DNA of 64,000 nucleotides from Elusimicrobia bacterium HGW-Elusimicrobia-1 (GTDB taxonomy: Bacteria > Elusimicrobiota > Endomicrobiia > PHAN01): assembly GCA_002841695.1 (NCBI GenBank), contig PHAN01000001.1, forward strand, positions 62,001-126,000. The letters run 5' to 3'. Each line of letters opens with the position of its first letter. The stretch's first letter is position 1. The notes under the pieces are model-generated. The model ran no database searches and was not told the DNA's origin. It was given only the letters and a program-made list of their open reading frames with translations. The position numbers and the translations under genes were made by a program. This document shows positions 15,025-60,844 of the stretch, piece by piece.

Positions 15025-16602
15025 ATGCCATCAGCGATGACGAGACACTTTAAAGCAGCCGCGGTTTCCGCCGCGTGTTTTTCTGCGTTCGCAATAGCGG
15101 GTTTTGCCGCCGTGCCCGCGGCGACAGAGCGCGTTTATTTCTTTCTTTCCAGAACTCAAAGTCCCGACGGAAGTGTCGGCGGCGAAATACGTCGCGCGGC
15201 GGATCAGGCGCTTGTCGCCTCCGTTTTTCTGTATCGCGGGCATATAAACAGGGCGCGAAGGGCGCTCGATATTCTCGACAATATAAGGGAGGCCGACAAA
15301 AAATCAGGCGGATTCAAAGGGTTCGCGCAGACCTACGACGACAAATCGCGGGTCGTCTCGGGGCGCATCGACCCGTTTGCGCAGGCGGCCGCCGCATCGG
15401 CTTTTTATAACTACAAATCCATTGCGGGTACAAGCAGATACGACCGTTCGATGTCGGCCCTGGCGGACTTGTATCTCGCGCGGGTCAACCCGTGGGGCGT
15501 TGTCAGCGATTTTTCCGCGCTCTCATCGACGTCCGCGCTGCCGGCGACAATATCGTCGCCATCGGCGGTCGAAAATCTCTGCGCCTATTATATTTTTAAC
15601 GCGGCCGCCGCCTACACGAGAGACGACCGCTACTTAAAAGCCGCCAAGCGTCTCGGATACGCGCTGAAAGATTTGTTCTTTGAAGAAACCCGCAAGAGTT
15701 TTGTCGCGGATTTGTCGGGCGGGCCGGCCGCGCCGGATTCTTACGCCAATATGCTTGGAGCGTTGTTTGGCGGCCCGTGGCGTCCGGCGGTGTCGCTTGA
15801 CGCCGGAGGCGGTTTGGGCCGTATGTCCTTATCCGAATTGGCCGCAGCGCAGTACACCGCGTCCGCGAATTCGTCCGTGCCATCGCCCGAGCCGGCAACG
15901 GCCATGTTCCTGAGTTTCCCGCCGGAGATACCCGACGGAGCGTTTATAGGCGCATCGGACGGACAATCCCGCCCGAAACCGGACTATTTCGCCACTGCGG
16001 TTTTTGTTTTTCTGGCGGAAAAAAATAATCCGTTTGCCATTCGCGACGAAAACTTTTTGCGCCGCGTGGACGGCGCCGAAGTTCCGCGCGGCGAGCAGTG
16101 GAAGTCCGACGGATTTGAGTCCGGTGAGAGAGAGTTTTATTCGGCGCCCCGCGAAGCCGTTCGCAACGCCGACGTGTTCTTAAGCCCCGACAATCAGTCG
16201 AAAAAAAACGGAAGTTTTTCCCTGAGGGCGCAGTATTTGCCCTTGAAAAACGAGAAATCCTCGGCCATTGTCACCAGGGTTTTCTACCCCGCGCAGGATT
16301 TTTCCGGAGCGGGCCGCTTACGGTTTTGGCTCGCTGCCCGCCCCGCGGTTTTTACTTTGGGCGCGATGAATCTGAAAATCCGCCTCAGAGTAATAGACGA
16401 ATCCGGAGTGTGGGCGGATTCCCAGCCGTTAAATTATTCCGGGCGCGGCGTGGAAAACTCCGTGGTCTGCCCCGCGGGTTTTACGCCGTCGGCCGTCGGA
16501 AAACATCCCGACTATTCCAAAATAAAAAAACTTGTCTGGATGTTTGAAGAAGAAACCCAGACGTCCTGGAACATAAATCTTGACGACGTGAGGATAGAAT
16601 GA
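15025..16602 (+). CDS. Exported protein with helical-toroid and jelly-roll-like domains, unknown function
   Basis: The protein has 525 residues. A signal peptide is visible (FKAAAVSAACFSAFAIAGFAA). Residues about 30-280 contain repeated helical units with aromatic and acidic positions (SRTQSPDGSVGGEI, YNYKSIAGTSRYDRSM, YLKAAKRLGYAL) that resemble an alpha/alpha toroid as in some glycoside hydrolases or lyases. Residues about 345-525 look like a beta-rich carbohydrate-binding jelly roll and end LDDVRIE. I do not recognise the family, and no catalytic residues can be assigned. It overlaps the following barrel-LysM gene by four bases, so both probably act at the envelope. An ATG at 15037 is an alternative start. 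Confidence 0.6.
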   Translation: MPSAMTRHFKAAAVSAACFSAFAIAGFAAVPAATERVYFFLSRTQSPDGSVGGEIRRAADQALVASVFLYRGHINRARRALDILDNIREADKKSGGFKGFAQTYDDKSRVVSGRIDPFAQAAAASAFYNYKSIAGTSRYDRSMSALADLYLARVNPWGVVSDFSALSSTSALPATISSPSAVENLCAYYIFNAAAAYTRDDRYLKAAKRLGYALKDLFFEETRKSFVADLSGGPAAPDSYANMLGALFGGPWRPAVSLDAGGGLGRMSLSELAAAQYTASANSSVPSPEPATAMFLSFPPEIPDGAFIGASDGQSRPKPDYFATAVFVFLAEKNNPFAIRDENFLRRVDGAEVPRGEQWKSDGFESGEREFYSAPREAVRNADVFLSPDNQSKKNGSFSLRAQYLPLKNEKSSAIVTRVFYPAQDFSGAGRLRFWLAARPAVFTLGAMNLKIRLRVIDESGVWADSQPLNYSGRGVENSVVCPAGFTPSAVGKHPDYSKIKKLVWMFEEETQTSWNINLDDVRIE

Positions 16603-17810
16603 CGAGATTATCGACGCGCTCCGCCGTTGCCTGCGCGGCGTTTATATTAACGGGCGTTTCCGCTTTCGCGTCGACGATTTCCCGCTTTCCCGGCATGGCC
16701 TCCGCCGGAGTGTCCGAACCCGACGGCCCGTCGGCCGCGCTGCTTAACCCCGCCTCTCTGGCGGTAACCGAAGAAAGCGAGTTTTCCGTCGGTTTGGCGA
16801 ACGGCCGCTCGAAGGGCATCGACTTAGGCGCTTCTTACACCGGGATATTCAGAAAGTTTGCTCCCGCCTCGGCGTTTCTATCAAAAAATCTCTCGACCGG
16901 CGAGTTTGATTTTTCCGCGGCTTTCGGACGCAAGGAAACACTGAACTTTTTGCCGGGTTTTTCATGGGGCGCGCGCGCGGGCGTTTCGGCCGCAGATGAC
17001 GGCGCCATAGCCGGCGGACTGACCGCCGGAGCCCATTTTCCCGTCGATGCGTGGCGTTTCGGCGCGGCCCTGGCGTCCGGCGGCGGCAGGCCCTCCGCCC
17101 GTTTGGGCGGCTCGACATATCTGCTGGACGAATATCTGCTTGCCGCCGACATAGACACGGATTCCAAAATCTATCTGGGATTTGAAACCGGAGTTTACGG
17201 CAATCTCGGCCGCGCTCGCGCGGGATTCAATACCCGCGACGAAGCCGTCTCCGTCGGACTGGGAGCGTATCTCTGGCCTTACGCCGTCGACGTATATTAC
17301 TCCGTGCCTCTGAATATTGCAACATCGGGGCGGTTTGGATTTTCCTTTGTGTACCGATTCGGCGGATACAATTTTTCACAGGTGCTTCTGGAGCGCAATA
17401 CCGAAAAAACCATGTATCTTGAAAAACGCATAAGGGACGCCAAGTCCGAGCTCTCGACGCTCAACAAGAAGCTAGTTGAGACGGAAGACGCCTACCGGAA
17501 AGCGCGCGATTTCGTGGACATTCTTGACTCAGAGGCGTCGGAGTTGATTAAGCAGAAATTAAAGATGATGAAGGGCGGTGTCGACGAGAAACCTGCGGCG
17601 GCGCCCGCGCCTCAGCGTCAGGCGGTCGCCGCTCCCAAGCGCACGTGGCCGGTTCGCCATCGCGCGCAGGCCGGAGATTCATTAAGGTCGCTGGCTCAGC
17701 AATATTACGGAGATTCCAACAAGTGGCAGAAGATATACGACGCAAATCGCAATAAAATCGAGCGGGGTTTGCCGAAAATCGGAGAAGATATAATAATCAC
17801 CGCGCCGTAA
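16599..17810 (+). CDS. PorV-like outer-membrane barrel with coiled coil and C-terminal LysM
   Basis: The protein has 403 residues. A signal peptide (about 1-25) is followed by the pattern GPSAALLNPASLA (NPA at 50-52) typical of the PorV/PorQ/UPF0164 outer-membrane family and an alternating beta-strand region to about 265. A charged coiled coil follows (about 270-325), then a Pro/Ala linker and a LysM module (about 350-403, HRAQAGDSLRSLAQQYYGD ... GEDIIITAP). The layout suggests a barrel in the outer membrane tied to peptidoglycan. It is translationally coupled to the exported protein before it. Its function is unknown. Confidence 0.65.
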   Translation: MTRLSTRSAVACAAFILTGVSAFASTISRFPGMASAGVSEPDGPSAALLNPASLAVTEESEFSVGLANGRSKGIDLGASYTGIFRKFAPASAFLSKNLSTGEFDFSAAFGRKETLNFLPGFSWGARAGVSAADDGAIAGGLTAGAHFPVDAWRFGAALASGGGRPSARLGGSTYLLDEYLLAADIDTDSKIYLGFETGVYGNLGRARAGFNTRDEAVSVGLGAYLWPYAVDVYYSVPLNIATSGRFGFSFVYRFGGYNFSQVLLERNTEKTMYLEKRIRDAKSELSTLNKKLVETEDAYRKARDFVDILDSEASELIKQKLKMMKGGVDEKPAAAPAPQRQAVAAPKRTWPVRHRAQAGDSLRSLAQQYYGDSNKWQKIYDANRNKIERGLPKIGEDIIITAP

Positions 17811-58286: not shown

Positions 58287-59639
58287 ATGAAACGCGCCCC
58301 CGCCGCACCTTTCGCCGCCTCCAAAGCGGCTTTTGTCTTTTTGAGGACGGGATTCCTCTGCGCCGCCTTGTTTTTGCGTTTTATCGTCGCCGCCGCCGCC
58401 GCCGCCGCCGAACTCAAGGTATATTATGTTTCGGTAGGTCAGGGCGACGCGACTTACATAGAACTTCCCGACGGTAAAAAAGTTCTGATCGACGGCGGGC
58501 CGAACAGCTCCGACTCTACACTCAACCCGATAATAAGATTTCTGGAAGGCAAAGGCGTTAAGAGTATTGATATGGTTTTTCTGTCTCATCCACATGCCGA
58601 CCATTACTACGGGCTTATACCGGTTTTCAATCGCTACACCGTCGGAAAGTATTACGATTCGTTCATTGTGGGTTCGGGTACGGCGGAATCTTTCAGAACT
58701 CTGGCAAAGACAAGAGCGACGGTTTACGAAGACACCAGAACGCGCAATCTATCGACATCGGCGACTTTCTATTCCATAACCTCGACGGATCCGCCGCTCT
58801 ATATGGTGATGCACCACAGAGGCGACTATTTTGGCGACCCGCCGCCCTCGGCTAACGACACTTCTCTTATATTTGCGATAAATTTCGGATCCTCGTCGTT
58901 TCTTTTCGGCGGCGACGCCGGCGGCAGCGGGAGTTATAAACCTTTGGAGGGGGCTGTCATAGCGCAGAATACCGCATCCATCAAAAAAATTCCCGGACCT
59001 ATCGACTGCTACAAAGTACACCATCACGGCAGCGATTCGTCGTCGACGGAAGCGTTCCTGAACTACATAAGACCGTCGTACGCTTTTATCGGCGTCGGGC
59101 TGGGAAACAGTTTCGGCCATCCCCGCCAGGCCACCATAGACCGCCTGAAAAATATTTTATCCCAGACGAATCCCGTCGCGCCCGGCGGCCATTACGGCAG
59201 CGGAATTTTCGCCACCGATTACGACGGAACCATCGAGGTCGTTACGACCGGCGACGGTAATTACACCATAAACGGTAAATTTTCTCCCACGGCAGGCGAC
59301 ACGGGCGGTGGCGGCGGCACCGGCGATACGACCACTTTGTCAGGCGAGCCGCTTCATTTCGTAAACGCTCTCAATAATCTTTTTTATCCCGATAAAGGCG
59401 AGTGGCTCAGGATAGAATACTATCTTAACAGACCGGGCGAATCGCTTTTCAGGGTATACACACTGTCGGGGGAAATAGTGTTGGAAGAAAAAAGATCCGA
59501 CGATTACGCCGGCGACCTCAGGGCGTGGGTCTGGAACGGCAAAAATTCCGACGGCGCCGTTGTGGCTCCGGGAGCTTATTTCGTATACATTAAAACGCCC
59601 GACGGTCATAGTGTCAAAAAAGCGGTGGTTATGCGATGA
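58287..59639 (+). CDS. Exported ComEC-like metallo-beta-lactamase protein with FlgD/Por-type C-terminal domain
   Basis: The protein has 450 residues. A signal peptide (about 1-41) ends in seven Ala coded by a (GCC)7 tract. The metallo-beta-lactamase domain has VSVGQGDATYIELP, HPHADH (101-106), FLFGGDAGG and KVHHHGSDSS, as in the ComEC nuclease-type domain, but there are no competence membrane helices. A Gly/Thr linker leads to a C-terminal Ig-like domain (FRVYTLSGEIVLEE, WNGKNSDGAVVAPGAYFVYI, KKAVVMR) like FlgD and type IX secretion sorting domains. It overlaps a PorV-like gene by four bases. The substrate is unknown; a secreted nuclease or phosphodiesterase is possible. Confidence 0.8.
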   Translation: MKRAPAAPFAASKAAFVFLRTGFLCAALFLRFIVAAAAAAAELKVYYVSVGQGDATYIELPDGKKVLIDGGPNSSDSTLNPIIRFLEGKGVKSIDMVFLSHPHADHYYGLIPVFNRYTVGKYYDSFIVGSGTAESFRTLAKTRATVYEDTRTRNLSTSATFYSITSTDPPLYMVMHHRGDYFGDPPPSANDTSLIFAINFGSSSFLFGGDAGGSGSYKPLEGAVIAQNTASIKKIPGPIDCYKVHHHGSDSSSTEAFLNYIRPSYAFIGVGLGNSFGHPRQATIDRLKNILSQTNPVAPGGHYGSGIFATDYDGTIEVVTTGDGNYTINGKFSPTAGDTGGGGGTGDTTTLSGEPLHFVNALNNLFYPDKGEWLRIEYYLNRPGESLFRVYTLSGEIVLEEKRSDDYAGDLRAWVWNGKNSDGAVVAPGAYFVYIKTPDGHSVKKAVVMR

Positions 59640-60844
59640 TGAATCTTCGCCGGTTGGCCGGCTTTGTATTCTTCGCGTTTTTCTGCGCGGCCGCCGCGAT
59701 TTCTCCGTCGGAAGCGGCGGGACTGACGGTAGCCGACGCGCTTAAACTTTCCGGTTCGGCCCGCGCCGATGCCATGGGTTCGTCGACCGCGCTTGATTAC
59801 GCGCCCGGCGGGAACCCCGCCATTTTCGACGGCGCCGACACGGCATATTTCAAGTTTCACGCTTCGCCTCTGGGCGTAAGGGTATTAAACGCGGGAGGGA
59901 AATATGCCTTTGGACGTTTCACTGCCGGCGCGTGGCTGCTCAGTCAGGACGCCGGCGACGTCGATATACACCGCCTGCCGTTTGAAGATGTCGTCACCGA
60001 GATGATTTATACCCAAAAACTCCAGAGCGACACGATAGTGTCCGGTTTTTTCGGCTGGGCGCCGACGAGAGCCGCATCGGCGGGCGTCGCGCTTAAATAT
60101 ATAACGACGTCGCTTTTGGGGCAATATTCGCTTTCCGCGGTCGCCGCGGACGCCGGATTATTTTGGCGCCCCGGCCGTATGGCCGTCGCGGCTTTGGCAA
60201 GAAACGTCGGTCCCGCCGCCGGGTATTCGGATTCTCCGGCGAAATTTCCTCTGCCGACGTCGTATTCTTTGGGGGCGGCATATCCCTTCGCAAATTTTTT
60301 GGCTCAGATTTCCGCGGACTATTCGCCCGCGGACGCCAAAGTGTCTTATACCGCCGGCGGAGAGTATCGAATTCCCGACGAGAAAATATATCCGCTTAAT
60401 TCCATGGCCTTTCGCGCGGGCATGCGCTTTCCGCCTGGCCGCAACGTCTCGCCGGAAAATATTTCTTTAGGATTCGCCATGGGTTTTTCCAACGCTCTTA
60501 TGGAATACGCATTCCTCCCTGTCGACGATGCGGGATATTCGCATCACATAGGTATTTCCTACCGGTTTGCCCATAAGACGGTGGTGCCGGAGTCCAGAAT
60601 TATGCAGGTAGAAAGAATAAAATTTGTCGACGGAGAATTTGAGGAGGCGTCGTTCAAAAAACTCGAGGATATCGCGATGACGCTCAAAGAAAATTCTCGC
60701 TGCACGGTGCGCGTGGAGGGCCATTTCGAGTTTGTGGACAAGGTTTTGGATTATTTCGTGCGTGTAGAGCGCCTGAGCGACGCAATGTTTGTGATAGCCG
60801 AAAAAGAGACCGATTGGGTTGACATTACACTCATCGGACAATGA
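59636..60844 (+). CDS. PorV/PorQ-like outer-membrane barrel with OmpA-like tail
   Basis: The protein has 402 residues. After a signal peptide (about 1-28), the stretch SGSARADAMGSSTALDYAPGGNPAIF has the PorV/UPF0164 features (GxAxAMGxA and the NPA motif at 60-62), in parts. Alternating strands follow to about 315. The C-terminal 80 residues (KKLEDIAMTLKEN, VRVEGHFEF, RVERLSDAMF) resemble a degenerate OmpA peptidoglycan-binding fold. In type IX secretion PorV carries cargo with sorting domains across the outer membrane. The coupled upstream gene has such a domain, but no PorU or other component is in the window. Confidence 0.68.
   Translation: MMNLRRLAGFVFFAFFCAAAAISPSEAAGLTVADALKLSGSARADAMGSSTALDYAPGGNPAIFDGADTAYFKFHASPLGVRVLNAGGKYAFGRFTAGAWLLSQDAGDVDIHRLPFEDVVTEMIYTQKLQSDTIVSGFFGWAPTRAASAGVALKYITTSLLGQYSLSAVAADAGLFWRPGRMAVAALARNVGPAAGYSDSPAKFPLPTSYSLGAAYPFANFLAQISADYSPADAKVSYTAGGEYRIPDEKIYPLNSMAFRAGMRFPPGRNVSPENISLGFAMGFSNALMEYAFLPVDDAGYSHHIGISYRFAHKTVVPESRIMQVERIKFVDGEFEEASFKKLEDIAMTLKENSRCTVRVEGHFEFVDKVLDYFVRVERLSDAMFVIAEKETDWVDITLIGQ

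What the first reader, a model, noticed from the sequence alone, without database searches (positions are those of the whole stretch)
58287..60844. FlgD/Por-type C-terminal domain protein coupled to a PorV-like barrel
In Bacteroidota type IX secretion, PorV handles cargo bearing a C-terminal Ig-like sorting domain. Here such a cargo-like domain on a secreted metallo-beta-lactamase protein overlaps a PorV-like gene. This suggests a type IX-like export or surface attachment route in a distant lineage.
Basis: partly seen in the sequence, partly recalled or inferred. Interest (0 to 1): 0.65.

Follow-up and report, generated by a model that had tools for sequence, protein, structure and literature searches.

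The report
Surface cargo with dedicated PorV-type shuttle
An uncultured Elusimicrobiota bacterium carries about 22 tandem gene pairs, one of them here, each coding for a secreted protein with a type IX-like tail followed by its own PorV-like outer-membrane barrel, together with a SprA-like export channel, which points to a type IX-like secretion route in a phylum where the literature I searched does not report one.

Summary
ORF A (58287-59639) is a secreted ComEC-type metallo-beta-lactamase with an Ig-like C-terminal domain (CTD). ORF B (59636-60844) overlaps it by 4 bp and is a PorV-type barrel: PorV, not FadL, is its best match by profile and by predicted fold. The genome is Elusimicrobiota, class Endomicrobiia. 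The pair is not a curiosity: 27 ORFs in this genome carry the same CTD, and 22 of them have a PorV-family gene directly downstream on the same strand. CTD and barrel distances covary across pairs (Mantel r 0.53, p 0.0002). A 1692-aa homologue of the T9SS translocon SprA/Sov is present, and it occurs in 213 of 248 sampled genomes of the phylum. The PorU sortase catalytic domain is absent here. GldL, GldM and GldN were not detected, but no positive-control genome was available. Best explanation: a type IX-like export route in which each type A-like cargo has its own PorV-family shuttle/anchor, an arrangement known in Bacteroidota only for type B cargo with PorP/SprF shuttles. All of this is inferred from sequence and predicted structure; nothing was shown experimentally. 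I call it a new variant of a known kind.

The parts
58287..59639 (+). ORF A: secreted ComEC-type metallo-beta-lactamase with C-terminal type IX-like sorting domain (cargo)
   Evidence: PF00753 1.8e-14; nearest solved structures are ComEC 7.9e-19 and the ComEC MBL domain 1.8e-18; orthologue in G080
58287..58409 (+). Probable Sec signal peptide (start codon uncertain; hydrophobic run followed by AAAAAA-ELKV)
   Evidence: Read from the sequence; the G080 orthologue has ...ALRVSAADLKV. No signal-peptide predictor was run
58434..59132 (+). MBL domain, with intact metal motif HPHADH (58587-58604) and the ComEC-like HHGS and GHPR motifs
   Evidence: motifs read from the translation
59349..59636 (+). 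CTD: Ig-like sorting domain
   Evidence: AlphaFold2 pLDDT 92.8; fold matches P. gingivalis PorU, FlgD and PorZ; 88% identical in G080
59636..59639 (+). ATGA start/stop overlap of the two genes (translational coupling inferred)
   Evidence: same overlap in L181
59636..60844 (+). ORF B: PorV/PorQ-family outer-membrane barrel with periplasmic tail (shuttle/anchor)
   Evidence: NF033709 2e-11; profile A3 hits PorV 6h3i_F 3.6e-30; fold match to PorV 8gl6_F 1.1e-11
59726..60565 (+). Barrel part, about 14 strands (residues 31-310)
60584..60841 (+). Periplasmic tail with beta-alpha-beta...beta order, reminiscent of the OmpA C-terminal domain but without a significant match
   Evidence: Pfam OmpA only E 0.23 in the G080 orthologue and nothing in the window copy

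Best explanation
ORF A is a cargo of a type IX-like secretion route and ORF B is its dedicated PorV-family shuttle/anchor. Proposed steps: (1) A crosses the inner membrane by Sec (signal peptide; inferred). (2) Its Ig-like CTD is recognised by the SprA-type translocon in the outer membrane (the homologue is present; the interaction is inferred). (3) The cognate PorV-type barrel, made from the overlapping gene, takes the CTD from the lateral opening of SprA and either holds the enzyme on the surface or hands it on (inferred from PorV and from SprF/PorP in Bacteroidota). With no PorU-type sortase found, I think the CTD stays on and the barrel is the anchor. The displayed enzyme is a ComEC-type MBL hydrolase, most likely a nuclease or phosphodiesterase acting outside the cell (inferred from family). 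What energises the step is not identified.
For: CTD fold and profile match T9SS CTDs: PorZ 8.5e-7, PorU 2.4e-6 and T9SS substrate 8glk 1e-3, besides FlgD. 18 of 20 CTDs of this genome hit TIGR04183, and 3 also hit the type B model TIGR04131. Barrel: PorV is the first match by profile and by fold; 15 of 15 barrels hit PorV/PorQ and 13 of 15 hit T9SS PorV. SprA homologue, conserved in 213/248 genomes and in 168/177 good-quality ones. 22 of 27 CTD ORFs have a PorV gene directly downstream. Of 28 loci from other genomes picked only by barrel similarity, 24 have a CTD ORF directly upstream on the same strand. CTD and barrel distances covary, Mantel r 0.53 (own genome) and 0.50 (phylum), p 0.0002 each. 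Other cargo are typical extracellular hydrolases: subtilases, PLD, M6 peptidase.
Against: PorU catalytic domain absent in the own genome. GldM, GldN and GldL not detected, so the motor and ring of the known T9SS are missing or unrecognisable. Window barrel and CTD score below the curated cut-offs. FlgD-type Ig domains also match the CTD profile, slightly better than PorU and PorZ. Covariation and adjacency would also follow from duplication of pairs as units. No experimental evidence.
Confidence: 0.72

Rival explanations
1. The barrels are FadL-type transporters of small hydrophobic molecules, and the CTD is just a FlgD-like Ig domain on secreted enzymes; the pairing reflects co-regulated uptake of the enzyme's products.
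For: PorV belongs to the FadL fold superfamily; TodX/FadL are the next matches; FlgD is among the best CTD matches.
Against: PorV beats TodX by 24 orders of magnitude in the profile search and leads the fold search. A SprA translocon is present. The cargo are unrelated enzymes, yet share CTD and barrel.
Confidence: 0.1
2. The barrel itself is the translocator of its neighbour (a two-partner-like system), and SprA serves some other purpose.
For: Strict one-to-one gene pairing; no recognised T9SS motor.
Against: A FadL/PorV-type 14-strand barrel is too narrow for folded cargo of 124 to 6501 aa, and in the known system PorV does not itself translocate. SprA is conserved across the phylum, and CTD genes lie near it in many genomes.
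Confidence: 0.08
3. A complete, highly diverged T9SS including motor and sortase, with GldK-N and PorU too divergent for the models used.
For: No positive-control genome rang for GldL, GldM or GldN, so absence is not shown. A C25 peptidase is found in 1 of 41 genomes. An M6 peptidase with a CTD sits by SprA in 17 of 42 loci.
Against: The SprA model picked up its distant homologue at once with the same method, and the PorU search found only CTD tails.
Confidence: 0.1

Closest known systems
Bacteroidota T9SS type A route (SprA/Sov, PorV, TIGR04183 CTD)
   Same: SprA translocon homologue, PorV-fold barrels, Ig-like type A-like CTD at the extreme C terminus of Sec-exported hydrolases
   Different: Many PorV paralogues, each next to its own cargo, instead of one PorV for all; no PorU catalytic domain found; GldL, GldM and GldN not detected
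Bacteroidota type B CTD with dedicated PorP/SprF shuttle (SprB-SprF; PMC12618676, PMC9143113)
   Same: Shuttle gene directly downstream of its cargo gene; one shuttle per cargo
   Different: Here the shuttle is PorV-family and the CTD type A-like in most pairs; only 3 of 20 CTDs hit the type B model
ComEC/Rec2 C-terminal MBL domain
   Same: ORF A's catalytic domain is nearest to it, metal motif intact
   Different: Free secreted enzyme with a sorting domain, no ComEC membrane channel
FlgD Ig-like domain (PF13860)
   Same: Same Ig-like fold and comparable profile scores
   Different: Terminal domain of secreted enzymes; no FlgD N-terminal part matched in ORF A
FadL/TodX transporters
   Same: Same barrel superfamily
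   Different: Much weaker match than PorV

Membership tests
Type IX secretion system (canonical) | SprA/Sov translocon | tested here: met
   TIGR04189 1.7e-39, 135 bits, 4 stretches, below the equivalog cut-off of 200; the only PDB match of its profile is SprA
Type IX secretion system (canonical) | PorV shuttle | tested here: met
   13 of 15 barrels hit T9SS PorV; best PDB match PorV 3.6e-30. The window copy itself hits only PorV_fam and PorQ, below cut-off
Type IX secretion system (canonical) | C-terminal sorting domain over the curated cut-off (TIGR04183/PF18962) | tested here: inconclusive
   Window CTD 20.1 bits against 23; genome-wide PF18962 has 4 matches, 2 over the cut-off; fold agrees with PorU and PorZ CTDs
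Type IX secretion system (canonical) | PorU sortase (C25 catalytic domain) | tested here: not met
   NF033707 matches only the CTD tail; PF01364 none in own genome, 1 of 41 genomes
Type IX secretion system (canonical) | PorL/PorM (GldL/GldM) motor | tested here: inconclusive
   GldM none in own genome; GldL one weak match in 41 genomes, none in own; no positive control
Type IX secretion system (canonical) | PorK/PorN ring, PorW | tested here: inconclusive
   GldN none in 41 genomes, no positive control; GldK and PorW not searched
Type IX secretion system (canonical) | CTD-dependent transport across the outer membrane | not testable with these tools
   needs genetics
PorP/SprF-type dedicated shuttle arrangement | Shuttle gene directly downstream of cargo | tested here: met
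   22 of 27 CTD ORFs; 24 of 28 loci in other genomes
PorP/SprF-type dedicated shuttle arrangement | Shuttle belongs to the PorP/SprF family | tested here: not met
   Barrels match PorV/PorQ; PF11751 PorP_SprF only 5e-4 in one other barrel
FadL/Toluene_X transporter | PF03349 match | tested here: not met
   No PF03349 match for ORF B at E 0.1
FlgD hook-cap protein | FlgD N-terminal domain and FlgD_ig over cut-off | tested here: not met
   Only the Ig part, 21.6 against 27 bits

The most novel reading that the evidence does not exclude
Elusimicrobiota run a minimal type IX-like system made of SprA plus an expanded set of PorV-family shuttles, one per cargo, without the PorLMKN motor/ring and without PorU. 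That would mean SprA export predates or spread beyond the Bacteroidota and can work without the known rotary motor.
Probability: 0.35. Interest if true: 0.82.

Novelty: new variant of a known kind. Interest (0 to 1): 0.62.

Why it matters
Recent papers still call T9SS exclusive to Bacteroidota (PMC12618676) or to the FCB group (PMC11205867). A SprA homologue conserved throughout Elusimicrobiota, together with dozens of CTD/PorV pairs, would widen its range to a deep-branching phylum. It would also offer a natural 'SprA plus PorV only' system for asking which parts are essential and what energises transport. One-to-one pairing gives ready-made cognate sets for working out how a CTD selects its shuttle.

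Tried and rejected
A scan of genome contigs with the window barrel found nothing, because the sequence is genus-specific: its only strong relative is in G080. A FadL-type barrel was considered and rejected. An OmpA-type peptidoglycan-binding tail on ORF B was suspected from the strand/helix order, but no significant match was found and it is not claimed. SprA-LptFG looked non-conserved in a first script that required the same strand; without that requirement LptF/G lies next to SprA in 36 of 49 loci. No Bacteroidota genome could be searched as a positive control for GldL, GldM or GldN.

Full report
Observation. A has a metallo-beta-lactamase domain with an intact HPHADH motif, nearest in solved structures to the ComEC MBL domain, and a C-terminal Ig-like domain with sub-threshold matches to FlgD_ig and to the T9SS type A sorting domain. 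B matches the PorV/PorQ family, below its cut-off. Upstream lie V-type ATPase genes and downstream pilM, pilN, pilO and, past the window edge, a secretin. The sister genome G080 keeps the pair, its 4-bp overlap and pilM downstream, with pN well below pS in both genes.

Where it comes from. A profile search with the SprA homologue of this genome in named genomes returns almost only Elusimicrobiota; the nearest, 78% identical over the best segment, is an Endomicrobiia MAG. The window is therefore from Elusimicrobiota, class Endomicrobiia (inferred from SprA neighbours, not from a marker-gene tree).

Genome-wide picture. The PorV/PorQ model gives 30 matches in this 2.06 Mb genome and the CTD profile 29 matches in 27 ORFs. 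Of the 27 CTD ORFs, 22 have a PorV-family match within 1 kb downstream on the same strand; by chance less than one would be expected if some 25 PorV genes were scattered among roughly 1,900 genes (my estimate of gene number). HMMs built without the window pair find it at 7e-14 (CTD) and 3e-35 (barrel). In 28 loci of other genomes of the phylum, selected by barrel similarity alone, 24 have a CTD ORF directly upstream on the same strand. CTD and barrel distance matrices correlate (r 0.53 in this genome, 0.50 across the phylum, p 0.0002 in both). This fits specific cognate pairs, though duplication of pairs as units would give the same.

Is the barrel PorV or FadL? The barrel profile hits PorV of the SprA complex at 3.6e-30 and TodX at 3.2e-6. 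The predicted structure of B (mean pLDDT 70, so medium confidence) has PorV as its first two matches, TM-scores about 0.6 by target, ahead of FadL. 13 of 15 barrels hit the T9SS PorV model. So PorV is the better reading.

Is the CTD a sorting domain? The model is confident (pLDDT 92.8); best fold matches are PorU, then C5a peptidase Ig domains, FlgD and PorZ. By profile FlgD is slightly ahead of PorZ, PorU and T9SS substrate CTDs, so the Ig domain alone does not settle it. Position at the extreme C terminus, the shared ending (GVY...K..VI.), the neighbouring PorV barrel and SprA settle it in favour of sorting. 18 of 20 CTDs hit TIGR04183, 3 hit the type B model.

Other type IX parts. SprA: 1692 aa at G000:C15:4109-9187, four colinear matches to TIGR04189, 135 bits as a whole protein, profile hit to SprA 6h3i 1.7e-29 and to nothing else in the PDB, conserved in 213 of 248 genomes of the phylum. 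PorU: only CTD tails matched; C25 peptidase none in this genome and in 1 of 41. GldM, GldN, GldL: not found in this genome; since no control genome rang, absence is not proven.

Mechanism. Known: in Bacteroidota PorV takes type A cargo from SprA, while type B cargo use dedicated PorP/SprF shuttles encoded directly downstream (PMC12618676). Here the dedicated-shuttle layout is combined with PorV-family barrels and mostly type A-like CTDs. I infer that B collects A from SprA and holds it on the surface. Shown: genes, folds, pairing, covariation, presence of SprA. Inferred: export, recognition, anchoring, and enzyme activity. Unknown: energy source. Several barrels carry periplasmic tails (OmpA, LysM, TPR, HHH), which suggests anchoring to the cell wall for those; for B the tail has no significant match.

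Literature. No paper in the searched library holds Elusimicrobia together with type IX secretion and PorV. The three papers that hold Elusimicrobia, type IX secretion and T9SS were not found to describe such a system: two of them were opened and do not, the third was judged by title and abstract only. Endomicrobi did not co-occur with T9SS among the papers listed. NCBI models exist for PorV2 and the PorV/PorQ family, so pieces are visible to annotation; the library lacks most subscription papers, so prior description elsewhere is possible.

Noticed in passing
window 15025-16602 and 16599-17810 (+): A second overlapping pair (4 bp): a 525-aa secreted-looking protein without family match and a 403-aa barrel-like protein with a LysM-type tail and a weak PorV match (2e-4). 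No CTD was recognised on the first ORF.
   Followed up: partly
L108:1557-3200, L105, L117, L163, L167 and others; own copy L058:4013-5668: An M6 metallopeptidase with the same CTD lies near SprA in 17 of 42 Elusimicrobiota loci, often with a TraF_2/PorV-like barrel beside it (order reversed in several). It could stand in for the missing PorU; in the window's genome it is not next to SprA.
   Followed up: partly
L055:9228-11704 and SprA loci L105-L177: LptF/LptG genes lie directly next to SprA in 36 of 49 loci, on the same strand in only one of them, which hints at a link between SprA and LPS transport.
   Followed up: partly
L069:7573-9249: A PorV-like barrel fused to helix-hairpin-helix (ComEA-like) repeats, beside another HHH protein (L069:9370-11745); possibly DNA-related, as is the ComEC-type MBL of the window pair.
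   Followed up: no
L061:5299-7422, L071:6477-8420, L059:7172-8668, L070:5088-6536, L068:13173-14375: PorV-like barrels with C-terminal OmpA, LysM or TPR domains, suggesting periplasmic or peptidoglycan anchoring of the shuttle.
   Followed up: partly
L059:3477-7130, L066:3885-6926, L069:3-3971: CTDs with the PNGDGVND-like start typical of type B sorting domains, yet paired with PorV-like barrels.
   Followed up: partly
L056:6602-18367 and L074:1915-12735: Giant CTD proteins (3921 and 3606 aa) without a PorV gene downstream: orphan cargo.
   Followed up: no
L069:11751-12956: A BamG-like barrel (NF053685 4.6e-13); BamG is known from the Bacteroidota BAM complex, unexpected in Elusimicrobiota.
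   Followed up: no
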